A stretch of 25,722 nucleotides of DNA from a virus. The notes under the pieces are model-generated. The model was not told where the DNA came from. It did no database searches and saw only the letters and a program-made list of their open reading frames with translations. The position numbers and the translations under genes were made by a program. Position 1 is the first letter of the stretch; each line of letters begins with the position of its first letter. This document shows positions 908-24,762 of the stretch, piece after piece. The DNA is taken from positions 1 to 25,722 of IMG/VR virus record IMGVR_UViG_3300006802_000492; one strand, written 5' to 3'.

Positions 908-909
908 AT

Positions 910-1125
910 ATGAGTAACTTTACATATAAAACAGAAGAAGGTTTGTATGACGTTGAGCTATTGAACGACGAAGCTAAGCTAACTTACAACTATTTGGTTG
1001 AGGTTGAGCAAGAGCTTGGCTCACTGGCAAAGCGTTCTAATGTATTACTAGCTGCTAAACAAACCTTTATTACAGCTATGAACAACAACCTAGACGAAGG
1101 GGCTTTAGTAACCGAAGAGGATTAA
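910..1125 (+). CDS. Hypothetical protein, 71 aa, helical
   Basis: A 71-residue acidic protein starting 2 bases after the SSB-like gene and ending 5 bases before the primase-helicase. Residues about 20-58 read as one or two amphipathic helices (EAKLTYNYLVEVEQELGSLA) and the tail is acidic (EGALVTEED). No cysteines or membrane segments. Position between SSB and helicase suggests a replication accessory protein. I do not recognise a family. Confidence 0.7.
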   Translation: MSNFTYKTEEGLYDVELLNDEAKLTYNYLVEVEQELGSLAKRSNVLLAAKQTFITAMNNNLDEGALVTEED

Positions 1126-1130
1126 AGATC

Positions 1131-2813
1131 ATGGCATTTGCTAAAACGCATCAACCATGTCCTTTATGTTCCAGCAGTGACGCACTCTCTATCAATACTG
1201 ATGGGAGTGCGGTTTGCTTTTCCTGCAAGGGATACATAAAGAAACACACAGAAGATAATTCAACCAGAGATAATATGATGATATCTAATACTCAAAGAGC
1301 TTTAGAACCAGAGAAGTTTTTAAGTGAAGGACAGTTTGCTGCCTTAACAGACAGACAAATATCATTAGAAACAGCTAAGAAGTACGGCGTTAAAGTAACA
1401 CACGACAGTGCTGGAGATGTCTTTAAACATATCTATCCCTACTATGGAGAGAATGATGTCATTGCCTACAAGACTAGGTTCGTAGGTAACAAGGACTTTA
1501 GATGGCAGGGTATATCAACACAGGCTAAGCTGTTCGGAGAGCATCTCTTCAGACAAGGCGGTAAGTTTGTAACCTTAGTCGAAGGAGAGTGTGATGCTAT
1601 GGCAGCTTATGAGTTGCTCGGATCACAGTGGCCTGTAGTGTCAGTGAAGAACGGTGCTGGTGGTGCAGAGCGGGATGTAAGGGATAACCTAGAGTTCTTA
1701 GAAAGCTTTGATCAGGTGGTCATTGCCTTTGATATGGACACTGTAGGTAAGGAAGCAGCGAGGCGCGTAGCTAGGCTATTGAAGCCGGGTAAGGCGAAGA
1801 TATTGAAATTCCCTGAAGGTTTCAAGCATGCCAATGATCTATTAAAAGCTAACGGGCATAAGCGTTTTGTACAGTGTTGGTGGGATGCAAAGACATACAC
1901 ACCTTCAGGAGTTCTAAGTGTCTCAGAGAACAGAGAGAAGTATAAGAACAGAGAGAAGAAGGTATCTTATCCATTCCCGTGGAAAGGTTTGAACGATAAG
2001 CTGGAAGGTATAAGACAAGGTGAACTCATTACCTTAACAGGTGGTACAGGTCTAGGTAAATCCAGTGTTACGCGTGAGCTAGAGCATTGGCTTATTAAAA
2101 CTACTGACCATAATGTAGGTGTCATCGCCTTAGAAGAAACCTTCAACAGAACAGTTGATGGTATCTTATCTATTGAGGCTAATGCCAAACTACATATCGA
2201 TAGAATAAGAGATTCTTTTACTGAGGATGAGCTAGATAATTTCTTTGATATAATGTATGACAAGGATAACTTCAACCGTGTTTGGATTCATGCACACTTC
2301 GGAGCCAATGACATCGAAGCTATCTTTAGTAAGCTACGGTTTATGATTATAGGTTGCGACTGTAAGTGGGTAGTGATTGATCACCTGCATATGCTTGTGT
2401 CTACCTCAGCTGAAGGTGACGAGAGGCGTACTATTGACGCTATCATGCACCGCTTAAGAACCCTTGTAGAAGAAACAGGGGCTGGTATTATTCTTGTGTC
2501 GCACCTTCGTCGAATAGATGGTAACAAAGGACATGAGAATGGCATCGAGACAGGGTTGAATCACTTGCGAGGATCTCAAAGCATCGCCCAGTTATCCGAC
2601 TGTGTTATCTCACTAGAGAGAAACCAGCAGTCTGATGATCCCATTGAAGCTTCTACTACCCGTGTCCGTGTACTGAAGTCTAGATACACTGGTGATGTTG
2701 GTATAGCTACACACTTGAAGTTCGACGATGATACTGGTAGGCTACAGGAGATGGACATGAGTGACATACAGGTATCTAAAGAAGATGACTTAGTATCATT
2801 GGGATTTGAATGA
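1131..2813 (+). CDS. DNA primase-helicase, T7 gp4 type
   Basis: A 560-residue bifunctional replication enzyme that unwinds DNA 5'-3' as a hexameric ring and lays down primers. Domains in order: N-terminal zinc ribbon with C10, C13, C29 and C32; TOPRIM primase with E151 (LVEGECDA) and the D-x-D at D201/D203 (FDMD); linker; RecA-like helicase with Walker A GGTGLGKSS at 304-312, catalytic E335/E336 region (ALEE), Walker B D417 (VVIDHLH), H458 (LVSHLRR), and a helicase motif around 480-490 (RGSQSIAQLSD) close to the T7 form. The C-terminal tail is acidic with a Phe (EDDLVSLGFE), like the polymerase-docking tail of T7 gp4. Length is close to the 566 residues of T7 gp4. It overlaps nothing and runs straight into the polymerase. 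Confidence 0.95.
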   Translation: MAFAKTHQPCPLCSSSDALSINTDGSAVCFSCKGYIKKHTEDNSTRDNMMISNTQRALEPEKFLSEGQFAALTDRQISLETAKKYGVKVTHDSAGDVFKHIYPYYGENDVIAYKTRFVGNKDFRWQGISTQAKLFGEHLFRQGGKFVTLVEGECDAMAAYELLGSQWPVVSVKNGAGGAERDVRDNLEFLESFDQVVIAFDMDTVGKEAARRVARLLKPGKAKILKFPEGFKHANDLLKANGHKRFVQCWWDAKTYTPSGVLSVSENREKYKNREKKVSYPFPWKGLNDKLEGIRQGELITLTGGTGLGKSSVTRELEHWLIKTTDHNVGVIALEETFNRTVDGILSIEANAKLHIDRIRDSFTEDELDNFFDIMYDKDNFNRVWIHAHFGANDIEAIFSKLRFMIIGCDCKWVVIDHLHMLVSTSAEGDERRTIDAIMHRLRTLVEETGAGIILVSHLRRIDGNKGHENGIETGLNHLRGSQSIAQLSDCVISLERNQQSDDPIEASTTRVRVLKSRYTGDVGIATHLKFDDDTGRLQEMDMSDIQVSKEDDLVSLGFE

Positions 2814-10228: not shown

Positions 10229-10358
10229 GTTTCTTTTTAGATCGTCGGGAAGTTTCAAGAGCTATAGCAACTGCTTGCTTTTGAGGCTTCCCTTCTTTCT
10301 TTAAAGTTTTAATATTTTTAGAAACTGTTTTAGCTGAGTATCCTTTCTTTAAAGGCAT
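10221..10358 (-). CDS. Small basic phage protein, DUF6496-like, 45 aa
   Basis: A 45-residue frame starting [20 protein letters not shown] and ending RRSKKKPT. Short proteins with an MPLKKG start, a T(I/V)[18 protein letters not shown] core and a basic tail recur in many marine and other phages (the type called DUF6496), with no known function. About one residue in three is Lys or Arg. It starts at a TAATG junction with the 94-residue gene and is the last gene of the late operon; its stop overlaps the convergent plus-strand gene. Confidence 0.75.
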
Positions 10359-10642
10359 TACCACTTCTCCCTGTCAGCCCAGTAAGCTGCTGACATCTTA
10401 CCCTTCTTAATATTCTCACCGTGACGAGCTTTAAAAGACGCTCTCTTCTTCTTCATCGCTTCAGACTCACCAGCTTTAGGTTTGCCTGCTGTCGATGCTC
10501 CTTGTTCTCCAAAGCGTATGGTCTTGACCTTATCGCCTTCCTTAGCTACAACTACGTGACTCTTCTTAGGATGGTCTGGAGTTCTCTTAGGTTTGTTAAA
10601 ACCGCTAACACCAGCTCTTTCTAAACGTGAATCTTTTTTCAT
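10358..10642 (-). CDS. Conserved basic phage protein, DUF6321-like, 94 aa
   Basis: A 94-residue basic protein. It shows a recurrent marine-phage pattern: [20 protein letters not shown] near the N-terminus, then [26 protein letters not shown], and a C-terminal [20 protein letters not shown] followed by YWADREKW. Proteins like this are usually annotated as hypothetical (DUF6321-type). The middle is flexible and rich in Gly, Lys and Ala; the end is helical and basic. Its partner downstream is the DUF6496-like gene, linked by TAATG. The conserved length and motifs suggest a virion or DNA-associated function but none is known. Confidence 0.78.
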
Positions 10643-11186: not shown

Positions 11187-11555
11187 TTAGTAGCTCCATA
11201 CCCAAGGGCGTGTATGATTATCAGTCTCGTCGAGATCATCTAGGTGTATGAATCTACCAGAGCCTTTCTGATTAACGCCTATACCACCTATATTCATGCT
11301 AAAAGCTTTCTTAAGAAGCTGATGAGCCTTCTCTCCTTGAACAGCAATATCTATTGCCCTTCCTGTTGAATGAGCACCCGGACCTGATGTTTTCTTAGCC
11401 TCGATAGGGTGATCTGGACAACGATAAGCAGAGCTAACAACAAAAGGAAAGCCAAGCTGCTCGCGCAGGAACTCTACTTTAGCCATGAAGTCTGCATTCA
11501 TGCCTTCTTTTCCACAGTGTTGGCAGGCTAGTTCTGCGGCAGTAAAATATTTCAT
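11187..11555 (-). CDS. Endolysin, peptidase M15 family
   Basis: A 122-residue zinc peptidase of the M15_3 type that would cleave peptidoglycan cross-links. Zinc and catalytic residues are visible: H62 and D69 in GAHSTGRAIDI, H104 in RFIHLDD, with SSAYRCPDHP (41-50) forming the usual loop and a final RPWVWSY. CQHCGKEG near the N-terminus (11-18) is a CxxC also common in this phage family. No signal peptide, so export would depend on the holin next to it. The start overlaps the LysM gene as ATGA. Confidence 0.93.
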   Translation of the reverse strand: MKYFTAAELACQHCGKEGMNADFMAKVEFLREQLGFPFVVSSAYRCPDHPIEAKKTSGPGAHSTGRAIDIAVQGEKAHQLLKKAFSMNIGGIGVNQKGSGRFIHLDDLDETDNHTRPWVWSY

Positions 11556-12430
11556 ACTTTTAATTTTCCTAAGTTTATTACTACCGGACTACCTTCCCCT
11601 TCTTTACTACCAAAAAACTTACCTATGTTTCTTAATTGTTTATAGCCAGATTTTCCAGCTTCTGCTACCCCTTTAGCAAAGTCCAGAGCATCAAAATCAC
11701 GAGCATCGTTAAAATTATAACGATCAATAACTAGAGTATTACCATCTTCATCTTCTACAATGTTAGCAGCACCTAGTAAAGTTTTTAAAGAATATGCAGG
11801 ATTTGTAATTTTAGAAATAAATGCTATATTATCTTCATTAGTGGCATATGTTCCACCTATATCTGCGTATGCGTTTGCTTTACCTGTTGTATCATAATCC
11901 TCGTAGTCAATTTTCGTAGTGTTTTTATTTTTAACGGCTTTAACCACCTCTATTAAAGCTGCTCTTTCTTCAGATTTTAAATCTTTTTCAGTGACGGTAT
12001 TTTCCACACCTGCTATATCGTATAAAAACTGCCTTACATTAGCAGATAACAAAGGCTCATCAACCTTTTTAGGAACAGGTTTTTTCTCTGTTAGTAAACT
12101 AGGTCGTTCTGTGCTTGCTGAAGCCGATGATATAAAGAAATCTTTTGCCTTATCCAATATATTGCGCTCGACAGCGACAGGCTGGGGCTTATCCTTACGC
12201 TTTAGAGGTGTTGGTTTTTTTGCTTGTTGTATAGAACGCTCTATCTGTTGAATTTCTTTTGCTTCTTGTTGTTTCTCTGCCTTAGCTGGTATTACTAATT
12301 TTTTACCTGCTCTAATTTTATTAGCGTCTTCAATTTGATTAGCTTCTGCGAGTTCCCGCATATCAACACCAAGATCAAGTGCGATCTGAGACAACGTGTC
12401 TCCGCTTTGTATCGTGTAATTTAAAGCCAT
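11552..12430 (-). CDS. LysM-domain protein, probable virion-associated
   Basis: A 292-residue protein with one N-terminal LysM module (about 4-48: YTIQSGDTLSQIALDLGV, then ANQIEDANKIRAGKKLVIP), which binds the GlcNAc chains of peptidoglycan. A lysine/glutamine-rich linker follows (about 49-85), then an unknown acidic region (NVRQFLYDIAGVENT onward) with no recognisable catalytic site and a C-terminal VINLGKLKV. No signal peptide. Between a giant ejection-type protein and the endolysin it could anchor the injection machinery at the cell wall, or assist lysis. The linker to the 1513-residue gene is 27 bases with AAAGGAAA before the start. Confidence 0.8.
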   Translation of the reverse strand: MALNYTIQSGDTLSQIALDLGVDMRELAEANQIEDANKIRAGKKLVIPAKAEKQQEAKEIQQIERSIQQAKKPTPLKRKDKPQPVAVERNILDKAKDFFISSASASTERPSLLTEKKPVPKKVDEPLLSANVRQFLYDIAGVENTVTEKDLKSEERAALIEVVKAVKNKNTTKIDYEDYDTTGKANAYADIGGTYATNEDNIAFISKITNPAYSLKTLLGAANIVEDEDGNTLVIDRYNFNDARDFDALDFAKGVAEAGKSGYKQLRNIGKFFGSKEGEGSPVVINLGKLKV

Positions 12431-12457: not shown

Positions 12458-15400
12458 TTATTTTTTAGTTTTACTTATCACCACAGCCACACCACTTATA
12501 CCCTGCTTACTAGGCACGGTAGAAACTTCAAAAGATTTACCTAATACATCAGCAACATAATTTTTAAGTTCTCCTATAGTAAAACCTTTCTGATAAGAAC
12601 CTGTAGATGTGGTGTAGGCTAACGACTCCTCTTTTACTGGTTTAGCATTAGAAGATGACATTCCTTTTTTAGCTGCACCAGCATCCCATGTCTGTATTAA
12701 TGCCTTTCCACCTACCTTTAAAGCCTTTCCTATATTTACAATAGCTTCATTCCTCAACGCTGGTGGTAGTACGTTAATAACATTAGTACTTATGATTTTA
12801 CCATATGTATCTTCAGGTACTTCTTTAGGGCTTTTAAACGTAGGTACAAAGTCTACATCTGGAAAAGGTTCAAAAGTATCATCTATTTTATTAGCTTGTG
12901 CGTTCAGGCCTTTCCCTGCTCCGTAGTCTAAAGACTTACCTGTAGCCCCTAGTAAGTCCAAGTAAGAAGATGCTTTAGTGGCTGTAGCTACTGTGTTAGC
13001 TCTCTGCGTAGTCCTTGAAGCACTGTTCTCCAGCAGAGCAGCATCTAGGTCATCCACAGGTTTAGCTACTTTGTCATCAACTGCTTTAAAAGCCATTTTA
13101 CCTAGCTTAACAACGGCACCCCCTATACCAAACCCCATACGCCCTAATGGATCTGTTACAATACCACCACCTTTAAAACCTAATCGGCGTAGAGGATCAT
13201 CATTATCTACGAAAGCAGCGCCGGCCTGTTGATCATAAGGAACACCTGTCATTTTATCTATACGTTGCTCAGGTTTTACAGGTACATTAGGAACATTTAA
13301 AACCTCGCCGCCTAGTTTGTAGACAGCCCGTTGTTTAGTTTTTGGGGGCGTTACTTCAATTAGTGGCTCACCTGTAATTTTTTCTGCGTAACCAGACACC
13401 TGCGAAACCACAGGCAATGAAACAGTAACCCTTTTCAAAGCTTTTAAAACCTCCCCCTCGCTCACATCAACACCGGCTTTAACACCACCTTTTAACACAT
13501 CGAATAACAAACCCAACGAAGGTATTAAAGATTCTCCTATACCTTCATCATAGGTAATAGCAGATTTAAATGTTTCTATAGCTTTATCCAGCACGGCGTT
13601 ATTAAAAGCACCGCTAAGCTTCATTGAATTACCAATAAAGTTAAGTGTGCTAACAGTACTTTTTTTGTCGTCTTCATCGTCACTAATGTAAGTAGGGCTA
13701 AGTGTCCTTTTTAACTCTAAGAAAGCTCCATAGACGGGTGCTGCTGCTAGTATTTTTATAGCTAACTTAGCATCTCCATTTTCAACTCTACCTAAAAGTG
13801 TATTTGCTTGTGTTGTTTTTGCCTGTGCCCAAGACATAAACTGCCCTATTGATCTGATAGCAGAATTATTTGTTTGTGTAAATAACAAACGATTACCTAC
13901 AGAAGGTATAATAGCATCTCTATCTGATGAGCTACGACCAGCAATATCTAACAAACTTCCAATAGAGGAATCGTTTTCAAAAGCTTTTTCAACTGTTTCA
14001 AAATTACCAATCTGAACTAAATCATCTTTAGTTAATTTCATTTCTGATAATTCTTTCAGTTCATTTTTATTTAGTTTTTGTTTCTTAGCCAACTCAAAGG
14101 CTCTGTTGACACCAACATCATAAGCAAAGTTACGAGACATCTCCGTTACTTTCTTTAGTCCCACAGAGAAAAAGTAGAAGTCGTTTATGTTATCTAGCCG
14201 TGTTGAAAACGTCCCACCTGTTGACCCTTTCCGCATGAAAGAAGATAAGTCTCTTTCATAATCCTTACTATACTTAAAATTACTCATCTCTGAGAACTGT
14301 ACTTTCTCCTTGCCTGCACGTTGTGCCAAGGTTTTAAAAGCTGCACCATAAGAGCTGTTAGTAAAAGGCTGCACCAAGTCGCCAAGGTTAACAATAGATA
14401 CTGTTGTTAAGTAGGTTACGTTTGCTAAGGTTGTGAAAGCTTTTGTAAAGACATCTAATTCAGTGTTTAGTGTACTACCGTAGCCACCCCAATAAGCTTC
14501 AGCAGAGCCTGTAAGTTGCGTTTCGTAAGCTGTTAGTTGTTTTTTTAACTTCTCAGCAACAGCGGTAGGTTTATCTTTAATAGCCTTTTCAAAAGCTTTT
14601 CTTGTTTCTTGAAGTGCTATATTAAAAACTTCTCCGTTTGCACCAAAAGCCTCAGAAAATTCAGAAACTTTTATAGCTGCTGTACCAGAAGAAGCTAACG
14701 AATCACCTGCATGAATATGCAAGTATCCTTTCTCGTACATAAATTTAGTAGCTTCTACATCTGTAAGCATTCGCTGTTTTTCAAAAGCATCAGCAGCTAC
14801 TCTGAACTTATACTCGCCTTTAGCATTCTGCGTAAAAATAGGTACATCTGAACTACCAGCATACAGTTTATTTTTAACATTAATGAAACGCCCAGATATC
14901 TTCTCTGCCATAACAACTGCTTTATCTCTAGCTTTTACTGCGTCTTCTTCTGTAAATGATTTATTTTTTACCTTTGCCCTGTTTCTTTCTTGAATAACAA
15001 CAGCATCTTGTAAATCTTTTACAAACTGACCGTAGTCACCATCAACACCACTTCTATCCCACACCTGATGTAGGCCATAGTTCTCAATCTTTTTAAATAC
15101 TATACCTACTTCTTCCATCCTAGCCGCTGTTCTATCCTGAAGATCCTTTAAAAGAGGGACTATTCTTTCTATTTCTGTAATATCTTCTACATCTAAAGGG
15201 ACTAGATCTTTACGCAGCCCTGTATAACCAGCTGACAGGTCCCCTATTTTTACATATCCACGCATTACCTCACCAGCAACAGTGTTAATAGCTGTATTTT
15301 TATTGTCTAAAGCATCATAGTTTACATCTTTTCCAAAAGCCTGCTTTGCTCGTGCAGCAAAAGATCTTTCGGCAGGAGCACCAATAATCTGAAACAGCTC

Positions 15401-16999
15401 TGATAAGTAATCAGCTTGTAGACGCTGTGTACGACCCTCTACAGACTCTACATTAGAATCTAGTTTACTGAATAGCTTATTACCTATTATCTTATTCCAC
15501 CCTCCCATAGCATCCATACGAACCGCAGTGCTCATACCTGTCACATACTTCAACTGTGATGCTGCTTTATTTAACCAGCTCTCACCAATATCTTGTATTA
15601 GTAATTCGCCTGTCTTTTTGTCCAGATTAGTAAATGTTTCAGAGCGTTGAATCTTTTTCTGCGCCATCCCTATAGCTACACCAGTACCAACATAAGAAAG
15701 TATATGGCCCCAACCATCATCTTCTTCTATTGTACTAAGACCCATCACGCCGCCCGCTGCCCCAAAACCAACAGGCCTTGCTGTTTCGTAGAGAACTTTC
15801 TGCATAATGTCAGCAGTTAGATTACCAGTAGTAGCCATGTCTTCTAAAACATCTACAGCTTTTTCAACACGTAACTGACTTGAACTGATTACATGTTCTT
15901 TTAAAGCATTGTGCTTCTGTGTAAGTTTATCAGTTAACTCTTTTCTCTGAGGGTCTTTTTTCTTAAGCGCAGCTATAGATTTATTTATATCATTTATCTC
16001 TTTAGAAAGACTAGATATAGTAGTTACTTTAATAAGCTCTTCTTCTTTTATTGGAGCTTTCTCAACAATCTTAGCGGTTGAGGTAGCTAAAGAAGTTGTT
16101 TCTTCTTGTGTAAGTTGCACAGTCATTGACTGCCGCTGACCTCTTTGGAAGCGATTAAAAGCTTTTACAAAATCTATCTGTGGGCTATCCTCAGTAAGCA
16201 TGACTTCGCCTTGTTGTATACGAGCATCTAGATCTAAAGTGCGCCTCCATTCTTGAATAACCTGATTCATAGGCTTCAAAGGTTCTTCTAGTACAGTAGG
16301 TACAATTTTTGTAGTATCAGCTAGATCCGCTGTTATCTCTTCTAAAATTTCAACAGGTTGTCCGTTGGTTTTACGGTTACTAATAAAACGAGAGAGAGCA
16401 TCGCCCCCTAAAGCAACAGTTCCGCCAAGAACAGCACTCACAACAAGATTAGTGTTATCTACTTCACCTTTTAATGCATAATCACGTAACGCAGATTCAC
16501 CAGCAGCTACACCAGCACCTGTAGCTACTACAGCAACTTTCCCCGCTGCTGCTACTTTAGTCCAAGGTATTAAGAAAGTTACTGGGTCTACTAAAGAAGA
16601 GCTTACCCTACCGCCTAAAACAGTCAGCGGCTCTTCCCCTTCTGTTAACCCACGAAACTCCGGGAAATCTGCAAGGATTTCTTTTTGTCTTTCAGCTTCT
16701 ACTTCTTTAAAAGATTCAGTAATTGTTTTATCACTACCTATACTTCTATAAGCAGCTTTTAAACCCCTGCCTAAACTACCCAGTATCTGAGGCTCTTGTG
16801 CAAAACCATAAGCAAGCTGACGGGCTGTAGATATGCTCTCGTAGTCAGGTTTTTTAAAAGCTTTAGAAAAATCAAAAACAATTCCATTTTCTTTTACGCT
16901 ATCGCTGATAGTTATAGGATCTACAGTAGCCTCATTATCTAAATCTTCTTCTGTTTTAAAAGCTTTAGAAAAATCAAATTTTATAAGCGGTGCTTCCAT
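12458..16999 (-). CDS. Giant internal virion/ejection protein with C-terminal methyltransferase-like domain
   Basis: A 1513-residue protein, the last large gene before the lysis cassette, in the place and size class of T7 gp16. N-terminus: two copies of FDFSKAFK (8-15 and 42-49) and a related IDFVKAF (275-281). An Ala/Gly/Val-rich hydrophobic stretch follows at about 150-210 (TKVAAAGKVAVVATGAGVAA; VVSAVLGGTVALGGDAL) that could insert in membrane. A long, mostly helical middle has no recognised catalytic site. At 1268-1290 there are two DPLxRxGF units with Gly-rich ends, then residues about 1340-1513 form a class I SAM-dependent methyltransferase-like domain: motif I LDYGAGKG (1357-1364), IISTNVINVLPP (1402-1413), GGKALIQTWD (1430-1439). 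This resembles polyvalent proteins injected with phage DNA. Ejection is inferred from context. Confidence 0.8.
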   Translation of the reverse strand: MEAPLIKFDFSKAFKTEEDLDNEATVDPITISDSVKENGIVFDFSKAFKKPDYESISTARQLAYGFAQEPQILGSLGRGLKAAYRSIGSDKTITESFKEVEAERQKEILADFPEFRGLTEGEEPLTVLGGRVSSSLVDPVTFLIPWTKVAAAGKVAVVATGAGVAAGESALRDYALKGEVDNTNLVVSAVLGGTVALGGDALSRFISNRKTNGQPVEILEEITADLADTTKIVPTVLEEPLKPMNQVIQEWRRTLDLDARIQQGEVMLTEDSPQIDFVKAFNRFQRGQRQSMTVQLTQEETTSLATSTAKIVEKAPIKEEELIKVTTISSLSKEINDINKSIAALKKKDPQRKELTDKLTQKHNALKEHVISSSQLRVEKAVDVLEDMATTGNLTADIMQKVLYETARPVGFGAAGGVMGLSTIEEDDGWGHILSYVGTGVAIGMAQKKIQRSETFTNLDKKTGELLIQDIGESWLNKAASQLKYVTGMSTAVRMDAMGGWNKIIGNKLFSKLDSNVESVEGRTQRLQADYLSELFQIIGAPAERSFAARAKQAFGKDVNYDALDNKNTAINTVAGEVMRGYVKIGDLSAGYTGLRKDLVPLDVEDITEIERIVPLLKDLQDRTAARMEEVGIVFKKIENYGLHQVWDRSGVDGDYGQFVKDLQDAVVIQERNRAKVKNKSFTEEDAVKARDKAVVMAEKISGRFINVKNKLYAGSSDVPIFTQNAKGEYKFRVAADAFEKQRMLTDVEATKFMYEKGYLHIHAGDSLASSGTAAIKVSEFSEAFGANGEVFNIALQETRKAFEKAIKDKPTAVAEKLKKQLTAYETQLTGSAEAYWGGYGSTLNTELDVFTKAFTTLANVTYLTTVSIVNLGDLVQPFTNSSYGAAFKTLAQRAGKEKVQFSEMSNFKYSKDYERDLSSFMRKGSTGGTFSTRLDNINDFYFFSVGLKKVTEMSRNFAYDVGVNRAFELAKKQKLNKNELKELSEMKLTKDDLVQIGNFETVEKAFENDSSIGSLLDIAGRSSSDRDAIIPSVGNRLLFTQTNNSAIRSIGQFMSWAQAKTTQANTLLGRVENGDAKLAIKILAAAPVYGAFLELKRTLSPTYISDDEDDKKSTVSTLNFIGNSMKLSGAFNNAVLDKAIETFKSAITYDEGIGESLIPSLGLLFDVLKGGVKAGVDVSEGEVLKALKRVTVSLPVVSQVSGYAEKITGEPLIEVTPPKTKQRAVYKLGGEVLNVPNVPVKPEQRIDKMTGVPYDQQAGAAFVDNDDPLRRLGFKGGGIVTDPLGRMGFGIGGAVVKLGKMAFKAVDDKVAKPVDDLDAALLENSASRTTQRANTVATATKASSYLDLLGATGKSLDYGAGKGLNAQANKIDDTFEPFPDVDFVPTFKSPKEVPEDTYGKIISTNVINVLPPALRNEAIVNIGKALKVGGKALIQTWDAGAAKKGMSSSNAKPVKEESLAYTTSTGSYQKGFTIGELKNYVADVLGKSFEVSTVPSKQGISGVAVVISKTKK
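12461..12982 (-). other. Methyltransferase-like domain within the 1513-aa protein
   Basis: Residues about 1340-1513. The glycine loop LDYGAGKG (1357-1364) is a good motif I for SAM binding. The acidic EPFPDVDF may hold the motif II acidic residue that contacts the ribose, IISTNVINVLPP is motif IV-like, and KALKVGGKALIQTWD is the usual motif VI to strand-5 pattern. The closing part has TGSYQKGFTIGEL and GVAVVISK strands. No DPPY or NPPY motif is present, so it is not a typical N6-adenine or N4-cytosine DNA methylase; the target could be DNA, RNA, protein or a small molecule, or the domain may be inactive. Confidence 0.75.
16853..16978 (-). repeat. 24-bp perfect direct repeat encoding FDFSKAFK
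   Basis: Two identical 24-bp copies lie at 16853-16876 and 16955-16978, 102 bases (34 codons) apart, both in frame in the 1513-residue gene. Each encodes FDFSKAFK. Identity at codon level over 24 bases suggests recent duplication or tight conservation of a short peptide motif. Confidence 0.85.
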
Positions 17000-17013: not shown

Positions 17014-18792
17014 TTAATCAAACAGTTTCAGATAATTATTTCTTTTTTCTTCAAGCTGCTCTATAAGCTGTGGAGAAAGATTAGGATTTCCATCTTTATC
17101 TTTATAGCCACTCCTAATAGCTTGTTCATTGAGCGTGTTGTACAATAAGTCAAAACCTTCATTTATAGCTTTTATTTTAAAATCATTTGGAATTACAGGG
17201 TCTTTTACAAAACTAAACTGATTATTAAATTCATCTTCTTCTAAAGAAACATAAAAAGGAGCAATCTTTTGACTTGTAACAGCAGCGATATCTCTGCCTG
17301 CTCCTGAACTCTTAGCACGTTCATCAAGGGTTTCTACTGAACCTAAACTGTTTTTAATAAAATCAATACCCGCTGTAGGATATTTAAAAACTCTTTCCAT
17401 CCTAGCTGGCTCATTAGATTCATACCATGATTTTTCTATCTCAGGTTCATTAACGAGGTTATTATTTATCTGATAGTTAATATAATCATAAGCTAGTTGC
17501 GTCCTTGCGGCAGGATTAATCTTAACTACTTCAGCAGGACTCAACTTAGAAAGCACCCCTTGTAACTCGTAAGCAAACTGCGGCATGAGTGTATCTGCTA
17601 CAAAAGCTTGAGAAGATTTCTGAATTTCTATATACTTATCAGTATCCTTTTTAATATCTTCAGGTGATCCTTCTACATCAAATAAACTAGAAGCTGTTAT
17701 TGTCTCTAGTACTTGCATAGACTCACGTCCATCCGGCCTAGCTATGTACATGTTCACAAGGCCTTTAGTTTCTGTTGGGCTTATATTAAGAGCTTTTTTT
17801 ACCAATGCTTGTTGAAGTTGCTCAGGATTTGTAACATTTTTACCATCAGTAGTATTTAAAAAAGCAGCGATTTCAGGATTTTTTTCGGCTACAGCAGCAA
17901 GGTCTGCACTATCCTGCAAAGAAACAACAGCTTCTTCAAACTGTCTCCCTTTTAGCAGTGGGCTGATTCCGGGATTCTTAGCTTGCCAAGAAGCCACGGC
18001 ATTAGTAAGGCGTCCGTTATTAAAACCTTCTAATTTTTTAATCTGTTCAGTAAGAGACTTCATGTAACCGCCTTCTTGGAGCTGAGTAAATAACTCGTCA
18101 TCCTCTTCATCAAATTTAGTAGACCCTGTTAGAATATATTTAGCTCCAACAGCTGCCGGATCTTTACCTGTCAGCTTACCTGCCCAAGTACTAAGAAGTT
18201 TTTTACCTGCTGATTTACCAAAGAATTGAGTAGTGTCAGCAGCTCTTTCTTTTAACACATCTACATCAGGGCTTAATGCCGCGTAGTCCCTTACTTTAGT
18301 AAGCATATCTAATTTTTCTTGTGCTGTTGTGTAGATGGTGTCTTGGCTATCCGCAATAATTTTATTAATAATAACTGCACTCTTAGCATCAGCACCATAT
18401 GTAAGCTCTAGTTCAGTTTTAAAATCAGCAGTTGCTTGTGACACTAAAGTATCTAAGGGGCTTCTACCACCTGTGCTAAGCTGATCAATTTGTTTAGTTA
18501 ACCTCTGCTCTATTTTATCAGCCGCTTTAGCTTGGCGGGCTATAATACGACCTTGTTCAGTTTCAAAATATTTCTTAGCGTTATCACCTAGAAATATATT
18601 ACTTGCTACTTCTGTAGCCCCTGAGACAAGAGCCTCACTAGCTCCTTTAAGAAGGGGAGCTGCTATATAACTAATGTATTGATCTCGCCTAGCATCTTTA
18701 CGGGCTTTCTCTTCTTCTTCTCTGCGTCTTTTAAACTCAGCGCCTTGGGCAGATCCTAGAATTGAATAAGCTTCTCCTAACGATGTAGCCAT
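17014..18792 (-). CDS. Probable internal virion protein, 592 aa (T7 gp15-like position)
   Basis: A 592-residue, mostly helical protein with no family I can name. The N-terminus carries a highly charged helix (EFKRRREEEEKARKDARRDQ, about 19-38), then a weakly hydrophobic segment (YIAAPLLKGASEALVSGATEV). The rest is Ala/Lys/Asp-rich helix without cysteines, a signal peptide or catalytic motifs that I can see. Gene order (small acidic protein, this protein, giant protein, lysis) matches T7 14-15-16, so a role in the internal core or DNA ejection tube is plausible. Its start directly abuts the stop of the 175-residue gene, which favours coupled translation. Confidence 0.72.
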   Translation of the reverse strand: MATSLGEAYSILGSAQGAEFKRRREEEEKARKDARRDQYISYIAAPLLKGASEALVSGATEVASNIFLGDNAKKYFETEQGRIIARQAKAADKIEQRLTKQIDQLSTGGRSPLDTLVSQATADFKTELELTYGADAKSAVIINKIIADSQDTIYTTAQEKLDMLTKVRDYAALSPDVDVLKERAADTTQFFGKSAGKKLLSTWAGKLTGKDPAAVGAKYILTGSTKFDEEDDELFTQLQEGGYMKSLTEQIKKLEGFNNGRLTNAVASWQAKNPGISPLLKGRQFEEAVVSLQDSADLAAVAEKNPEIAAFLNTTDGKNVTNPEQLQQALVKKALNISPTETKGLVNMYIARPDGRESMQVLETITASSLFDVEGSPEDIKKDTDKYIEIQKSSQAFVADTLMPQFAYELQGVLSKLSPAEVVKINPAARTQLAYDYINYQINNNLVNEPEIEKSWYESNEPARMERVFKYPTAGIDFIKNSLGSVETLDERAKSSGAGRDIAAVTSQKIAPFYVSLEEDEFNNQFSFVKDPVIPNDFKIKAINEGFDLLYNTLNEQAIRSGYKDKDGNPNLSPQLIEQLEEKRNNYLKLFD

Positions 18793-19320
18793 TTATTTTT
18801 CTCCTAACAAAGAACGTGGTGGTTCTATATTTTCTATTTTAGCACTTAGCTCAGCTGGGAATTCTTCGTCTTTCTGCGGGTTTTTAATAGAAGAAAGAGA
18901 ATCATTTAACATCTGCATACCGCCTCCAGCTGATTCTTGTTCATCTTCATCTTCATCATTACTGATAACAAATTCAACATCAGCCCTTTCTGCTAAAGAA
19001 GCAATCATATAGGCTAAAGGCTCAGCTACAATTAACATCATATCAGGGTTTATTAAGCCTTCTGAAAATGATTTGTAAACAAGAACCTTAACAATATCCA
19101 TTACAGTAGTACCGTCTTCTAAAGCATCTAACACTTTTATATATATATTCTCTTCTGTTAAAAGCTCAAAGAAGTACTCTAAAGCCTTTGTCCTATTTGT
19201 ATAGACAGGTGGCCCTTCAAATGGATGAGGAGTATCAGGAGAATTAGTTAAAGAGTGTCCGGGTATGGGCCTTTTAAAAGATGTACCTGCTTTATAGAAA
19301 GCTTTATCTAGGTCTGACAT
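18793..19320 (-). CDS. Acidic structural-type protein, 175 aa (T7 gp14-like position)
   Basis: A 175-residue acidic protein. It has a Pro-rich N-terminal part (HSLTNSPDTPHPFEGPPVYT, 22-41), a helical core with two hydrophobic helices (TKALEYFFELLTEE; LINPDMMLIVAEPLAYMIASLA, about 89-110) and a strongly acidic run, DEDEDEQE, at 122-129. The C-terminal 45 residues are disordered-looking. The size and operon place match T7 gp14, a membrane-pore ejection protein, but there is no sequence proof. It stops exactly at the start of the 592-residue gene and begins 16 bases after the 362-residue gene. Confidence 0.7.
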   Translation of the reverse strand: MSDLDKAFYKAGTSFKRPIPGHSLTNSPDTPHPFEGPPVYTNRTKALEYFFELLTEENIYIKVLDALEDGTTVMDIVKVLVYKSFSEGLINPDMMLIVAEPLAYMIASLAERADVEFVISNDEDEDEQESAGGGMQMLNDSLSSIKNPQKDEEFPAELSAKIENIEPPRSLLGEK

Positions 19321-19336
19321 TAGTTATATTCCTTTA

Positions 19337-20425
19337 TTAAGCTGCAAATTGCTGCATATAATTGTCGTAATAATTCTTGGTGTTAACAGCACCACCCCAC
19401 ATTCCATCAGGAGAAGTACCTGAAGTATACTGGTAAACGTAGGAAGTATAGTCATCTACCTGTGAAGCTTGTATAGCTTGTGAGCTTCTGTAAGTACCTG
19501 CATTAGATCCCCACGGTGTCTTAGCTTCATACTCTTCTGGTGGATTTATCATTTCCATAAGTTTACCAGTTACCATACTTGTTGCTATAGCTCCGGGCAT
19601 AGCCTCTGCTTTAGCTATAGCATCTCTACCCATGTCACCACTAACAACATAATTTGTGGCTCTTCCCGGCAAAGCTTTTACATAGTCTAAAGCTTGTCCG
19701 GGCAGTGCTGCTACACGACCTAGCAAAGAAGGAGGAGGTGCTACAGCCGCAGGGAAAGCAGCGCCACCGGGATAACCCACAGGCTGCTGTAAGGACTGTG
19801 TAAAATCAGGAGTTTTCCCCATTACACTTTCTAAAGCTTTTGGATCTTGTAAAGTTGTAGTAGCTACAGGCGCTGTAGAAGGAAGCGGCATAGCCCCAGC
19901 AGTAGCAGCAACACTACTTGTTCCTAGAAACTCAGCACCCTTACCTACAAAAGCATCAAAGTTATTCACCATTGCCTTACTATACTGACCCCAAGCTTCT
20001 CCTACAGATAGGTTAGGCATGACAGCACCTGCTGCTGTTTTAAGTCCTAGCTTACCGCCAATATACCTACCAGTAGCACCAAAGAACTCAGTAACAGCAC
20101 CAGTAACAGTTTTAAAACCAGCCTTAGCTACACTTGCAAACTGACTAGCTTTCTGCATAACCCAGCCAGCGCCTCTAGCAAGAGAACCCATAACACCTGT
20201 TGCTGTTGAACCTGCTAAGCCTGCTGCTGCTCCTGTAAAGGCTCCGCCTAGAGCACCTAGAGCCATATTGGCAATACCCGGCAGGATAAAGAACATGGCA
20301 ACCTGTCCAAGTATACCTGCCTTATTGACAAGCTTGCCAAAGCTTTTAAATGCACTCTTGACTGCCTTACCAATTGCCTTAAACGGCTTTTTAATACCTT
20401 TCCAAAGCTTACTAAAAAATCCCAT
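19337..20425 (-). CDS. Amphipathic, glycine-rich membrane-active virion protein, 362 aa
   Basis: A 362-residue protein. Residues 1-36 are a basic amphipathic helix with Phe and Lys in rhythm (KKPFKAIGKAVKSAFKSF), followed by a hydrophobic Gly/Ala-zipper region (about 38-85: ILGQVAMFFILPGIANMALG, then GAFTGAAAGLAGST). This looks like a peptide that lies in and crosses membranes. The middle is Ala/Gly/Pro-rich; the end is Tyr/Ser/Gln-rich (DDYTSYVYQYTSGTSPDGMW). Similar N-termini occur in other marine podovirus structural proteins of unknown role. A part in the ejection apparatus fits best. Start has AGGAGT. No catalytic motif. Confidence 0.74.
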   Translation of the reverse strand: MGFFSKLWKGIKKPFKAIGKAVKSAFKSFGKLVNKAGILGQVAMFFILPGIANMALGALGGAFTGAAAGLAGSTATGVMGSLARGAGWVMQKASQFASVAKAGFKTVTGAVTEFFGATGRYIGGKLGLKTAAGAVMPNLSVGEAWGQYSKAMVNNFDAFVGKGAEFLGTSSVAATAGAMPLPSTAPVATTTLQDPKALESVMGKTPDFTQSLQQPVGYPGGAAFPAAVAPPPSLLGRVAALPGQALDYVKALPGRATNYVVSGDMGRDAIAKAEAMPGAIATSMVTGKLMEMINPPEEYEAKTPWGSNAGTYRSSQAIQASQVDDYTSYVYQYTSGTSPDGMWGGAVNTKNYYDNYMQQFAA

Positions 20426-20439: not shown

Positions 20440-23400
20440 TTACATTTTTATACCAATTTCATCTAAAATTTTGAACAAAGCTGTTCTTTGAGCTACTATC
20501 TTTGTATCGGTGCTGGTCATGAAAGCTTCGTTCTGAAGAGCTGACTGAATAACTGTTATTTTCCTATCAAGATCAGCTTGAGATACATTCAAATCAAAAG
20601 CAGCTAGATCACGCATTTCCTGCCACAGCTGAGCCTGAGAGGTAGCTGTAAGAGCAAAGCTATTCTGTACACTTTGTTGGTTAGCTGCATTCTCAGCGGC
20701 AGTATCTGCTAGGTTAGCATTTCTTCTCCAAGCAATATTAGCTTGTTCAATAGCTTGTGCATTAGCAGCATTCCACTGATCTCTTTGATAATCAAGATTA
20801 GCATTAAACTGTTCTACTGATGTAGTAATCTGAGCATTAAACTTATCAGCTTCTAAAATATTTGCAGAGTCTAAGGCTGAAAGCTTATTAGCTTCTGAAA
20901 CATTAAACTGTTCCATTGCATTTGTTTGGGCGCTATTAAACTGATCAGCCTGTAGCTTTAGACTAGACATGAACTGCATTGTCTGAGTTTCAGAAGTAGC
21001 GTTAAATTGAGATGCTGCATTTGTAGCTGCTTGATCAGATAACAAACGCTGTTGTAACATCTGTTGATCTAATATAATAGCCTGTTGCTCATTACCTAGA
21101 TTAGTCATATCCATAGCTAAAAAGCTTTTAGCATTCTCTATAGCTAACTTAGTTCTTTGATCAATATTAGCCATGTCCATAGAAGCCATAGCCGCTGCGT
21201 TTTGCATAGCTGCTTGTTGATCAGCACTAAACTTAGTCTGTGTCATGGTCTGCATAAACTGACTATTAGCAATAGCCATTTGTTGATTAGCATCCATTTG
21301 TTTCATGTCTAAGTTGCCATTCATTTGCGCATTAAACATAGCTGCTTCTTGTTTATTTGAAAGGTTTGCTAAGCCCATTTGCTGTGCAAGTTGTGCATTG
21401 ACTTGACCAGCCTGCATCTTCTTTTCATACATTTGAAGTTCAGCAACATTCTCAGCACTCATAGATTCTGAAGCTGCTTGATTCTTTTGTGTTAGATTAG
21501 AAAGACTGATTTTTTCAGCAGTTGAAAGTCTTGCAAGATCTGCATTTTGTCGCAAGGATTCATTCTGAGACATTATAGTAACGTGATTGTTTAATTCTTG
21601 GAATCTAAAACGATTAGCCTCAGTAAAGTTTGCTGCATCTGTAGCAGATCTTTCGGCAAGATTAGCCAGCTCCATTTGCTGCTCGTTGCCTAGATTAACA
21701 AGATCCATTTGTTGAGCTAATTCAGCATTAGATTTTCTAAAGTCTACAAGAACATTAAGATTAGCAAGCCTTGTCTGTTGTTCAGAAGTCATGTTAGCTC
21801 GTGAAGTGACATTCTTTTCACTAAGTTCTGCTAGTTCTACTTTTAAACTAGCATCAAGATTTACTTCTTTCATTCTTTGTTCAAGTTCAGCTTTTCTAAT
21901 GCTTCTATCTACAACCGCATTTAAACGTGCTAGTTCAAATTGATTTTCAGCTGTAAAATTAGCAGAATCTGTAGCTGCTTTTTCAGAAAGGATAGCTAGA
22001 CGCATTTGCTGATCATTGGACATATTAGCCATGTCCATCTGCTGTGCAAAAGTAGCATCAGTTTTACGGAAGTCTATTAGGGTCTGTAGGTTTGTAAGTC
22101 TTTCTGATTGTTCGGCAGTCATTGTATCTTTAGCGGCTGCATTTAATTCAGAAATTCTTTGCATCTCAACCTGCAAGGAAGCAGAAAGATTAGCTTTTTC
22201 CATATCCTGTTTTAAATCAGCAGTGCGTACAATCCTATCTACTTGAGCATTATAACTAGCTAGTTTTGATTGCTGTGCTGCGCTTAGGTTTTCTGAACCA
22301 GCAGCATTAAGAGCTTGAAGATTTGCAAGGTCTGCTTGTGCAGCAACATTTAACGTAGCAATAGCTGCTTGTTGTTTCTGAGCAGACTCTTGCTGTGCTT
22401 TTTCCTGTGCCATCTTTGCATTAGTTAATGCTGTCTGCTGTTCTTGTTCAGCAGTAGTTAACACAGCTTGTTGTTTAAAAGTTCCTTGCTGTAATTTAAT
22501 CTCATTAGCCATCTGTGCTGATTGTGAAGCAGCTGTCTGAGTATTTGCAAGGTTCTGCATACGGATAGTCATTGTATTCTGAGCAGTAGCTAAATTAACC
22601 TGCTGTTCATTTGAGAGGTTCTGAGCTGCACGTTGCTGAAGAGCCTGTGCGTTGCTCTGAGCCATTGGTAAAGCACTCTGTATGATAGCATTAAAGAGAG
22701 CATCACGGCCTACAGTGGACGCTGTGAGGCCTCTCTGAGCCATCTGCTGCTCTATAGCGGCTACTGCTGGCCTAGCCCATGCTGGTGTCTTACCTTCTTC
22801 CATACCTGCTAAAAGCTGTTCCATCTGTACGGAAACAAGTGCTTCTTGTGGTAAGGCGGCTACAGCTGCTACAAGGTTCGGAACTTTTCCACTATCTATA
22901 GCTGCTTCTGCCTTTGCTGGATCTTCGGACAACGCAGCACTTACTGCTTTAGGTACGTTAGCTACTACAGCCAGCATATCAGCAGCACCAACACTACGAG
23001 CTTCTCCTGTCACTGCTTGTCTTGTAGCAGCTTCCAATGTAGGAACACCACCAATTTGAGCAGCATTACCTTGTGGCACAGTACCTGTAATAGCTTGACG
23101 GCCTTCAAGGTCTACAGAAGGGGCAGTACCTAGTTCTTGTGCAATTCTAGTAGAAGCTTCGCCTGTTTGAGCTACACGCTGAGATGCTACTTTAAAAACA
23201 GGTAGATCTGCAATATCTGTAGGACCGCCCTCAGCTGTGAAGTCACTAGCATAGTATGTTGCTTGGGCTGCTACTTCTTCAGGCGGAATACCTAACCTAT
23301 CAGAATATTCTTTATTAGCTGCTGTGCCTACTTGTAGTGTTCTTTCTTGAGCTAGTTTATATTCTGGAAGATCTTCAACATTAACACCTCTTTCTTTTGC

Positions 23401-24762
23401 GAGGTTTAGTAGACCAGCTTTTTCTTCTTCACCTATGATAAGACCTTCTCGTGTCGTAACTTTAGGGCCTTCTACCTCTTCAACAGTAAACTTCTGATCT
23501 GTTGTAACACCTGTTACATAATCTTTAGCTTCAGGACGAGCAGCTGCAACACCTTTAGCTGCTTCTTCAGCCGCTAAATCCCTGCCAGCTGCAACAGCTT
23601 CTTTTGTCAGTGCTTTTTGTTCTTCTACTTTAGCTACTGCTTCAGGACTAACAGCCCCTATTGCTGCTCCTGTAGGCGCTGTTTCACCAGCTTTAGCAGC
23701 TTCATAAGTCTGTGCTGTTACTTCTTGAGCTGTAGTGTCTGCCGCTACTTCACCTTCTGTCAATGTATTTTTAACGGCTTCAACAGCTTTAGGAGCTTCA
23801 ATGCCAGCAAGCTCATCTATTTGTTGAATATCACCAGCAGCTGTGGCAATACCGGCATCAGTAGTAGCTGCCATAGATTGAAAATCATCCATGTTTAACT
23901 CAGCCATCTTTGCCAGTTCTGCTGGTGTTTTTTCGTATGAAGTACCAAAAGCAGTTACAGTATAGTTACCTGTTGTTGGGTTATAAGTTGTTTTCATATC
24001 ACCACTAGCCGCAGCAGGTAGCTTATTAACAGCCTCTAACATCTTTTCAGGATTAAAACCGCCTATAGGATTACTTGTGGGGGCCGCCGCTTGAGCTGCT
24101 GCTCGATCCCTTATTACTTTTTCACTCTCTGCTTTAGCGGCTTCATTAGCCTCTCTGGCAAGCTTTTGTTCTGGTGTTTCTTTGGCGGCTTCAGCTTCAG
24201 CTCGTTGTACTGGTGTTACATCACCTTCTAATGGCATATTATTTATTCCTGTATTATTAGTTATAACTGGGCTGGTATAAGTATAGGAAGGAATGGTTGT
24301 ATTAACTGTTCCTACACCTGTGGGTGCGGAAGCCGGGTTACTTGCTGCAGTTCCTATAGAGGTCAAAGGAGCATTATAATTTAAAGGAGCATTTACTTGT
24401 CCTCCAGTACCTATATAATCACCAGCACTTAAAGACATATTATCCATTGTTGTTACAGGCGCTGTATAACCGCCTACCATTGGCCCTATTCCCTCCCCTA
24501 AGACAGCAGTAGGAGGAGCAAAAATTCCTGTTCCTTCTTGTACAATTACACCTGCTTCTTCAACTGGCGGTTGATTTTGTTGTACAAACTCTGCTTTTGA
24601 AACTAAAGGGGCATTAGCTCCACCAACTCTTCCTGCAGGAACAGCACCTGTCATAGAAGGGCCTGCACTATACTGCCCTACATTTAACACTGTAGCATTA
24701 GAAATCATAGAGTCTGTCATCCAGCCCCCTAAGCTACCACCAATGCTCCAACCTGCTGCCAT
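20440..24762 (-). CDS. Giant virion protein with long hendecad coiled-coil, 1440 aa
   Basis: A 1440-residue protein, no recognised enzyme domain. Residues 1-460 are Gly/Ala/Thr/Pro-rich and probably flexible or beta-rich. Two related 55-residue segments begin at 464 and 519 (DLPEYKLAQ... and DLPVFKVAS...). A conserved-looking block AWARPAV...AQRGLTASTVGR...AIIQSALPMAQSN lies at about 661-705. From 715 onward the chain follows an 11-residue rhythm: N-(L/M)-(S/G)-N-(D/E/K)-Q landmarks at 715, 913, 1023, 1133 and 1221, six 55-residue repeats at 803-1132, and nine QFN-type hendecads at 1252-1350. The last 90 residues form a different helical end. It is Gln/Asn/Ala-rich and lacks cysteines. Fibre, core rod or ejection-tube roles are possible; a tape-measure role is less likely in a podovirus. 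Confidence 0.75.
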   Translation of the reverse strand: MAAGWSIGGSLGGWMTDSMISNATVLNVGQYSAGPSMTGAVPAGRVGGANAPLVSKAEFVQQNQPPVEEAGVIVQEGTGIFAPPTAVLGEGIGPMVGGYTAPVTTMDNMSLSAGDYIGTGGQVNAPLNYNAPLTSIGTAASNPASAPTGVGTVNTTIPSYTYTSPVITNNTGINNMPLEGDVTPVQRAEAEAAKETPEQKLAREANEAAKAESEKVIRDRAAAQAAAPTSNPIGGFNPEKMLEAVNKLPAAASGDMKTTYNPTTGNYTVTAFGTSYEKTPAELAKMAELNMDDFQSMAATTDAGIATAAGDIQQIDELAGIEAPKAVEAVKNTLTEGEVAADTTAQEVTAQTYEAAKAGETAPTGAAIGAVSPEAVAKVEEQKALTKEAVAAGRDLAAEEAAKGVAAARPEAKDYVTGVTTDQKFTVEEVEGPKVTTREGLIIGEEEKAGLLNLAKERGVNVEDLPEYKLAQERTLQVGTAANKEYSDRLGIPPEEVAAQATYYASDFTAEGGPTDIADLPVFKVASQRVAQTGEASTRIAQELGTAPSVDLEGRQAITGTVPQGNAAQIGGVPTLEAATRQAVTGEARSVGAADMLAVVANVPKAVSAALSEDPAKAEAAIDSGKVPNLVAAVAALPQEALVSVQMEQLLAGMEEGKTPAWARPAVAAIEQQMAQRGLTASTVGRDALFNAIIQSALPMAQSNAQALQQRAAQNLSNEQQVNLATAQNTMTIRMQNLANTQTAASQSAQMANEIKLQQGTFKQQAVLTTAEQEQQTALTNAKMAQEKAQQESAQKQQAAIATLNVAAQADLANLQALNAAGSENLSAAQQSKLASYNAQVDRIVRTADLKQDMEKANLSASLQVEMQRISELNAAAKDTMTAEQSERLTNLQTLIDFRKTDATFAQQMDMANMSNDQQMRLAILSEKAATDSANFTAENQFELARLNAVVDRSIRKAELEQRMKEVNLDASLKVELAELSEKNVTSRANMTSEQQTRLANLNVLVDFRKSNAELAQQMDLVNLGNEQQMELANLAERSATDAANFTEANRFRFQELNNHVTIMSQNESLRQNADLARLSTAEKISLSNLTQKNQAASESMSAENVAELQMYEKKMQAGQVNAQLAQQMGLANLSNKQEAAMFNAQMNGNLDMKQMDANQQMAIANSQFMQTMTQTKFSADQQAAMQNAAAMASMDMANIDQRTKLAIENAKSFLAMDMTNLGNEQQAIILDQQMLQQRLLSDQAATNAASQFNATSETQTMQFMSSLKLQADQFNSAQTNAMEQFNVSEANKLSALDSANILEADKFNAQITTSVEQFNANLDYQRDQWNAANAQAIEQANIAWRRNANLADTAAENAANQQSVQNSFALTATSQAQLWQEMRDLAAFDLNVSQADLDRKITVIQSALQNEAFMTSTDTKIVAQRTALFKILDEIGIKM
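20713..21009 (-). repeat. Nine tandem 11-residue units, QFN type
   Basis: Residues 1252-1350 divide into nine consecutive 11-mers. Most begin Q-F-N or a close variant (QFN, QFM, QFN, QFN, ALD, KFN, QFN, QWN, QAN). The 33-bp period is exact over 297 bases with no insertion or deletion. Confidence 0.85.
21367..22356 (-). repeat. Six in-register 165-bp coding repeats (55 residues each)
   Basis: Residues 803-1132 of the 1440-residue protein split exactly into six 55-residue units with no gaps: starts at 803, 858, 913, 968, 1023 and 1078. Units 2 and 4 share (I/V)DFRK at positions 39-43 and AQQMD at 49-53. Units 3 and 5 share QQM at 6-8, ATD at 18-20 and ANFT at 22-25. Units thus alternate, giving a 110-residue supra-period. 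The DNA copies are diverged, so this is an old repeat. Confidence 0.85.

What the first reader, a model, noticed from the sequence alone, without database searches (positions are those of the whole stretch)
20440..22620. Strict 11-residue rhythm over more than 500 residues of the 1440-residue virion protein
Landmarks of the form N-(L/M)-(S/G)-N-(D/E/K)-Q fall at residues 715, 913, 1023, 1133 and 1221. The gaps are 198, 110, 110 and 88, all multiples of 11. A hendecad period gives a straight or slightly right-handed coiled coil rather than the usual heptad supercoil. As a continuous helix this region would exceed 70 nm (about 1.5 angstrom per residue), longer than a typical podovirus capsid is wide, so it must fold back, lie along a tail or fibre, or form a tube outside the head.
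Basis: partly seen in the sequence, partly recalled or inferred. Interest (0 to 1): 0.75.

Follow-up and report, generated by a model that had tools for sequence, protein, structure and literature searches.

The report
Eleven-beat ejection protein of marine podoviruses
A 1440-residue protein of an ocean bacteriophage, probably one that helps push its DNA into the host cell, really does repeat every 11 residues for about 670 residues, and its relatives gain or lose length in this stretch only in whole 11-residue steps (110 at a time among close kin), which points to a rigidly phased helical device rather than a simple straight coiled coil.

Summary
The landmarks sit exactly at 715, 913, 1023, 1133 and 1221. 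The 11-residue register runs unbroken over residues 700-1367 (668 aa) and recurs in about 150 relatives without one phase shift. Every gap found inside the array in three alignments is 11, 55, 110, 121 or 220 residues; the flanks are full of 1-6-residue gaps. Among close relatives the array length changed at least 12 times, always by multiples of 110.

Hydropathy has no peak at 3.67 residues (the straight coiled-coil signature); its peaks are at 2.75 and 2.2. On a helical wheel this gives two opposite hydrophobic faces, a Gln stripe and a charged face. The same pattern matches the hendecads of the phiX174 DNA-translocating H tube (P about 0.006), but not a hydrophobic-core hendecad coiled coil (P 0.95). 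AlphaFold2 gives one 166-residue helix in a short relative. In this protein it folds residues 790-1100 into turns every 22/33 residues at conserved Ser/Thr/Asp caps, so a continuous 70-100 nm rod is unlikely.

Best reading: an ejection protein of an HMO-2011-like short-tailed phage, with a Gln-striped helical-conduit core plus an expandable folded module. Virion location and oligomeric state are inferred.

The parts
20440..24762 (-). 1440-aa hendecad-array protein (H), complete ORF
   Evidence: the ORF listing; relatives in 26 phage records and more than 100 IMG/VR loci
22846..24762 (-). Residues 1-639: Ala/Thr/Glu/Pro-rich region, variable in length and full of small indels; probably disordered (inferred)
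   Evidence: composition; indel spectrum; 44 Pro in residues 1-699; the equivalent region of the short relative is mostly at pLDDT 30-45
22654..22845 (-). Residues 640-703: conserved junction (P-WA...MA-RGL-S....NAI..SA-PIAQ), the family anchor; low-confidence short helices in AF2
   Evidence: alignment A7; tblastn
22291..22653 (-). Residues 704-824: Gln-rich hendecads (21% Gln), strong Gln stripe at 3.67
21466..22290 (-). Residues 825-1099: amplified 55/110-residue units (5 hendecads each), predicted helix-turn-helix with caps at 860, 882, 915, 937, 970, 992, 1025, 1047, 1080
   Evidence: AF2; cap conservation; 110-residue length steps; deletion breakpoint in relatives L027/L035 at 890-901
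20662..21465 (-). Residues 1100-1367: C-terminal hendecads (15% Gln), the block shared with short relatives
   Evidence: continuous helix in the short relative
20440..20661 (-). Residues 1368-1440: C-terminal tail outside the register, with small indels, and stop codon
19337..20425 (-). 362-aa neighbour, basic amphipathic N-terminus then long hydrophobic Gly/Ala stretch; probable membrane-active internal virion protein
   Evidence: sequence; synteny; weak tape-measure PHROG hit 0.032
18793..19320 (-). 175-aa neighbour with RPIPGQSLT...PPxFT motif, found downstream of H in nearly every locus that reaches it
17014..18792 (-). 592-aa neighbour, putative internal virion protein
   Evidence: synteny
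12458..16999 (-). 1513-aa neighbour; relatives match PHROG 'virion structural protein' families and a giant endolysin-tipped profile
11552..12430 (-). LysM plus endolysin domain, matching the C-terminal end of the giant profile that its neighbour's relatives also hit

Best explanation
H is an internal virion (ejection) protein of an HMO-2011-like short-tailed phage. Its hendecad segments are alpha-helices of about 3.67 residues per turn with two opposite hydrophobic faces, a Gln stripe and a charged face. That pattern suits helices packed side by side around a polar lumen, as in the hendecad part of the phiX174 H DNA-translocating tube, and not a classical two- to four-stranded coiled coil. 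The conserved core (residues about 704-824 plus 1100-1367, present in all relatives) would form the conduit wall after ejection. The middle block of amplified 55/110-residue units (825-1099) folds into helical hairpins and acts as an expandable spacer. Selection keeps the 11-residue phase, so only whole-hendecad length changes survive. Shown: rhythm, phase lock, length quanta, wheel pattern, gene context. Inferred: virion location, oligomer, DNA passage, role of the spacer.
For: Zero phase shifts in 58 unique relatives and in 97 more, where 86 of 86 re-entries through a phase-free state came back in register. Array gaps only 11/55/110/121/220 residues against hundreds of small gaps outside. 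Length changes of exactly 110n in near kin, at least 12 events. Hydropathy power 0.6 at 3.67 against 36 and 32 at 2.75 and 2.2; Gln power 25 at 3.67 (mean of 54 arrays). Helical wheel: hydrophobic axis 123/303 degrees, Gln about 196, charge about 36. The phiX174 H hendecads fit the 11-column profile at one rotation (+15.7 bits, P 0.006; G4 P 0.003; alpha3 same rotation, P 0.07; short-member profile P 0.024), aligning H's Gln 1 and 8 with the Gln positions 7 and 3 here; tetrabrachion does not fit, P 0.95. The phiX174 H tube is lined mainly by Asn/Gln/Arg (PMC7354561). Conserved cluster H - 362 - 175 - 592 - 1513; relatives of the 1513-aa protein match virion structural families. Same portal as HTVC104P in 8 of 11 related contigs. 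AF2: 166-residue helix in the short relative; hairpins in the unit block with caps.
Against: No sequence homology to any solved structure or any named family; Foldseek finds nothing significant (best E 0.63 and 0.70). Both AF2 models are of low overall confidence (mean pLDDT 52 and 57; pTM 0.29 and 0.21) and monomeric. The Gln stripe is weak in the unit block. Three hendecads of H are a small sample, and the permutation test on the wheel itself is only suggestive (joint 0.013). No proteomics was found for this protein.
Confidence: 0.5

Rival explanations
1. Continuous straight hendecad coiled-coil rod over the whole array, about 100 nm at 1.5 angstrom per residue.
For: Unbroken register; almost no Pro; AF2 predicts a single 166-residue helix in the HTVC033P relative.
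Against: No hydropathy peak at 3.67, unlike tetrabrachion; AF2 breaks in 790-1100; cap residues S/T/D/N/G in 79-100% of sequences at all ten predicted helix starts checked, against 0-94% (mean about 0.5) at position 3 of neighbouring hendecads; all 14 array prolines fall at or next to one predicted helix start, window 861.
Confidence: 0.12
2. The whole array is an ordinary alpha-solenoid or helical-hairpin repeat domain (55-residue module), with no tube function; the 11-residue rhythm is a relic of how the module arose.
For: AF2 hairpins and 55/110 spacing; cap conservation; length changes of 110 in near kin.
Against: Distant relatives differ by multiples of 11 that are not multiples of 22 or 55; the short relative is predicted as one long helix through NLSN motifs; loops normally tolerate odd indels, none seen.
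Confidence: 0.25
3. Tape-measure-like or ruler protein setting a tail or channel length.
For: Tape measure proteins are long, alpha-helical and can carry 11-residue repeats in which partial-repeat deletions mostly abolish plaques (TP901-1, PMC5099701).
Against: Relatives are short-tailed (PMC9038755; PMC6918029); the array varies from about 175 to 1122 residues within one phage group; no aromatic 11/18 pattern as in TP901-1. The tape-measure PHROG profile hits all 14 control genomes, so its hits mean little.
Confidence: 0.08
4. No structural selection: 11-fold indels merely reflect recombination between 33-bp or 330-bp repeats.
For: The 110-residue units are 60-80% identical at DNA level in some relatives, and the window against L027/L035 event looks like recombination between units.
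Against: Single-codon indels, common in the flanks, are absent from the array; 11-residue units are too diverged for slippage (no tandem repeat found).
Confidence: 0.05

Closest known systems
phiX174 (Microviridae) DNA pilot protein H, residues 151-183 hendecads of the decameric tube (PDB 4JPP)
   Same: 11-residue helical repeat, Gln stripe, same order of residue types around the helix; carried into the host to form a DNA conduit in phiX174 (PMC7354561)
   Different: No sequence homology detected; H has 3 hendecads followed by heptads, here about 16-100 hendecads and no heptads; ssDNA phage, encoded in another kind of genome
T7-type ejection (internal virion) proteins gp14/gp15/gp16
   Same: Cluster position, order of small, medium and giant gene, short-tailed phage, lytic domain next to the giant gene; ejected proteins forming a trans-periplasmic tube in T7 (PMC8954989)
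   Different: H is an extra gene ahead of the set and has no T7 counterpart by sequence; such a phased repeat is not described for the T7 proteins in the review read
Siphophage tape measure proteins with 11-residue repeats (lactococcal TP901-1)
   Same: Long, helical, 11-residue units, sensitive to register (PMC5099701)
   Different: Those are marked by Trp/Phe at 11 or 18 spacing in long-tailed phages; here Asn/Gln/Leu, only 11, short-tailed relatives
HMO-2011-type hypothetical proteins (HMO-2011 gp25, HTVC104P gp61, HTVC033P gp56, CRP-2 gp49) and CHOED_013 of Vibrio phage CHOED
   Same: Homologous and syntenic, all annotated hypothetical
   Different: Arrays of about 175-350 residues; the window protein adds the amplified middle block

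Membership tests
Hendecad right-handed coiled coil (tetrabrachion type) | Hydrophobic seam, hydropathy period 3.67 | tested here: not met
   Power 0.3-0.6 at 3.67 here; tetrabrachion control 6.0 over 52 residues
Hendecad right-handed coiled coil (tetrabrachion type) | Unbroken 11-residue periodicity | tested here: met
phiX174 H-type DNA pilot protein | Sequence homology to H | tested here: not met
   No PDB chain reached E 1 with the family profile; no phiX-like record among the tblastn hits
phiX174 H-type DNA pilot protein | Hendecads with inward amide side chains | tested here: inconclusive
   Gln stripe at 3.67 and column-order match P 0.006 (phiX), 0.003 (G4), 0.07 (alpha3); that the stripe faces inward is inferred
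phiX174 H-type DNA pilot protein | Oligomeric tube through the envelope | not testable with these tools
   Only monomer prediction available
Podovirus internal virion / ejection protein | Gene in the internal-virion cluster of a short-tailed phage | tested here: met
   Conserved order; portal and tail protein of HTVC104P type in related contigs; short tails by EM in PMC6918029
Podovirus internal virion / ejection protein | Present inside virions and ejected | not testable with these tools
   No proteomics found in the papers searched
Podovirus internal virion / ejection protein | Homology to T7/P22/N4 ejection proteins | tested here: not met
   No Pfam, PHROG or PDB match
Tape measure protein | Long-tailed phage, tail length follows protein length | tested here: not met
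   Isolated relatives are short-tailed (PMC9038755, PMC6918029)

The most novel reading that the evidence does not exclude
A two-state, self-extending conduit: in the virion the 55/110-residue units are stored as helical hairpins, and on ejection they open into continuous hendecad helices. The 11-residue phase is kept across every turn because the extended state needs it, and copies of a 10-hendecad unit lengthen the channel in fixed steps of about 16 nm.
Probability: 0.13. Interest if true: 0.85.

Novelty: new variant of a known kind. Interest (0 to 1): 0.57.

Why it matters
[quoted passage not shown] A protein family in which all natural length changes keep an 11-residue phase, in steps of 110 among close kin, is a strong natural experiment on helix phasing. 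It also offers a recombinant target, about 460 aa in HTVC033P, for testing whether dsDNA podoviruses use a Gln-striped helical tube like the one known from phiX174.

Tried and rejected
Pfam, PHROGs and PDB sequence searches of H and its alignment: nothing. Profiles of the 175-aa and 1513-aa neighbours against PDB: nothing. Foldseek of both models: only non-significant all-helical matches (Protein A repeats, Vipp1/ESCRT-III, BAR domains). Tape-measure profile phrog_167: uninformative, hits all 14 control genomes. DNA-level tandem repeats: none. A beta-solenoid reading of the 2.2-residue peak was dropped: the composition is helix-forming with little Gly and almost no Pro, and AF2 gives no strand. 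The apparent break in L062 is a frameshift, probably an assembly error, not stop-codon recoding. I first read the array as one continuous helix; the AF2 breaks, cap conservation and the proline site made me give that up for the middle block. Spacing differences whose N- or C-anchor scored weakly (truncated loci) were not used. A scan of bacterial genomes found only seven weak or MAG-borne relatives, not followed.

Full report
OBSERVATION. The ORF at 20440..24762 on the minus strand encodes 1440 residues. The rhythm is far beyond chance: identity at lag 11 is 0.164 against 0.092 +/- 0.0115 in 2000 shuffles, and only multiples of 11 stand out among lags 1-59. A hidden-Markov-style scan with a phase-free null state finds one unbroken register from 700 to 1367 (668 residues), with a super-repeat of 55 and 110 residues.

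FAMILY. Relatives occur in 26 annotated phage records (Pelagibacter HTVC103P/104P/115P/033P, Roseobacter CRP phages, HMO-2011, Vibrio CHOED, Aeromonas MQM1, Pseudoalteromonas Slicky01, Rhizobium and Sinorhizobium phages) and in more than 100 IMG/VR contigs. Protein length runs from about 460 to over 2000 residues and array length from about 175 to 1122. In 58 unique sequences no phase shift was found. In 97 more, all 86 re-entries from the phase-free state came back in register, where 10 of 11 would be out of phase by chance; the sequences are related, so this is not a product of independent trials. Inside the array the gap lengths are 11, 55, 110, 121 and 220 only, while residues 1-640 and the C-terminal tail carry hundreds of gaps of 1-6 residues and other lengths. 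The distance between the N-terminal junction and the C-terminal anchor differs from the window by -220, -110, 0, +110, +220, +330 or +440 in near relatives, and by other multiples of 11 in distant ones. Part of the C-terminal anchor lies in the array, so the multiple of 11 there restates the register; the multiple of 110 is extra. On a tree built without the variable unit, at least 12 length changes are needed. The closest relatives (L027/L035, 95% identical flanks) lack exactly one 110-residue unit, with the breakpoint between two homologous positions (890-901 and +110). Duplicated units are up to 80% identical in DNA in L045, so tandem duplication or unequal recombination makes the steps, and selection on phase filters them (inference).

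HELIX TYPE. In 54 arrays hydropathy has mean power 0.6 at 3.67 residues, 36 at 2.75 and 32 at 2.2; Gln has 25 at 3.67. On an 11-residue helical wheel the hydrophobic positions 2/10 and 8/4/11 form two opposite faces (axis 123/303 degrees), Gln points to about 196 degrees and charge to about 36. The tetrabrachion hendecad coiled coil, as a control, has its hydropathy peak at 3.67. The three hendecads of the phiX174 H tube fit the family profile at one rotation (+15.7 bits, P 0.006 when only column order is permuted), G4 H at the same rotation (P 0.003), alpha3 H at the same rotation with P 0.07, and the profile of short members alone gives P 0.024; tetrabrachion gives P 0.95. phiX174 and G4 H are near-identical here, so they are not independent tests. 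At that rotation the H residues Gln 1 and Gln 8 fall on positions 7 and 3, the Gln-rich positions here. The phiX174 tube is a decamer of helices, 170 angstrom long, with 18 of 23 inward residues being Asn, Gln or Arg, and its first part is built of hendecads (PMC7354561). This is a resemblance of working principle, not homology.

STRUCTURE PREDICTION. AF2 of window 640-1440 (19 sequences) has mean pLDDT 52, but 65-83 over most of 790-1100, where helices start at 861, 883, 916, 938, 971, 993, 1026, 1048 and 1081: alternating steps of 22 and 33, that is 55 per unit. At the residue before each of these starts, and before the next one in step (1103), a cap-type residue (Ser/Thr/Asp/Asn/Gly) is present in 79-100% of sequences, against 0-94% (mean about 0.5) at position 3 of neighbouring hendecads. 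Prolines are 14 in 30,631 array residues, and all lie at the predicted start at window 861 or one residue before it. So the middle block very likely folds back. AF2 of the short relative HTVC033P (35 sequences) instead gives helices of 76 and 166 residues, the first running straight through two NLSN motifs, pLDDT 76-88 over 281-390. The core hendecads and the amplified units therefore differ: Gln is 21% and 15% in 704-824 and 1100-1352 but 9% in 825-1099, and the Gln stripe weakens there. Both models have low pTM and nothing significant in Foldseek.

CONTEXT. The gene is followed by genes for 362, 175, 592 and 1513 residues in conserved order wherever loci reach that far and the neighbours are recognisable. 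Relatives of the 1513-aa protein match PHROG virion structural families and a giant profile whose endolysin end is the separate LysM gene next door in the window. Related contigs carry the HTVC104P portal (8 of 11) and tail protein (7 of 11). HMO-2011-type phages are described as short-tailed (PMC9038755) and CRP-1 to CRP-3 have short tails by EM (PMC6918029). The position matches that of ejection proteins, which in T7 leave the head and form the trans-periplasmic tube (PMC8954989).

VERDICT. The rhythm is real, longer and stricter than claimed. It is not a classical hendecad coiled coil, and one continuous rod of 70-100 nm is improbable for this protein. Most likely it is an ejection protein with a Gln-striped helical core and an expandable folded block; the location and the conduit role are inferred, not shown.

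Noticed in passing
window 11552-12430 (-) and 12458-16999 (-): The LysM/endolysin gene matches the C-terminal end of a 2564-position PHROG profile (phrog_7348) that relatives of the adjacent 1513-aa protein also hit, suggesting a lytic tip that is split off here and fused elsewhere.
   Followed up: partly
window 10358-10642 (-): A small basic 94-aa protein matches phrog_7595 strongly (6.8e-41) and weakly the microvirus 'minor head protein and DNA pilot' profile phrog_220 (2.8e-6), perhaps by basic low complexity.
   Followed up: partly
window 19337-20425 (-); L044 8053-9369: The 362-aa neighbour starts with a basic amphipathic helix and a long hydrophobic Gly/Ala stretch; it hits a tape-measure profile weakly, but that profile also hits all control genomes.
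   Followed up: partly
L008 4570-5019 (HTVC115P); L012 106-2220 (HTVC033P): Cargo genes next to H in pelagiphages: an annotated toxin-activating lysine acyltransferase, two 2OG-Fe(II) oxygenases and a putative ferrochelatase.
   Followed up: no
L062 about 8376: The H gene is frameshifted in the middle of the array, probably an assembly error.
   Followed up: partly
window residue 861 (about 22182): Twelve of 58 relatives have Pro at this one array site and almost nowhere else in the array, a natural marker of a helix start.
   Followed up: yes
L196 (Aeromonas sp. RU39B) and L190-L195: The junction motif occurs in seven bacterial genome records, mostly MAGs; possibly prophages or phage contigs binned with hosts.
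   Followed up: no
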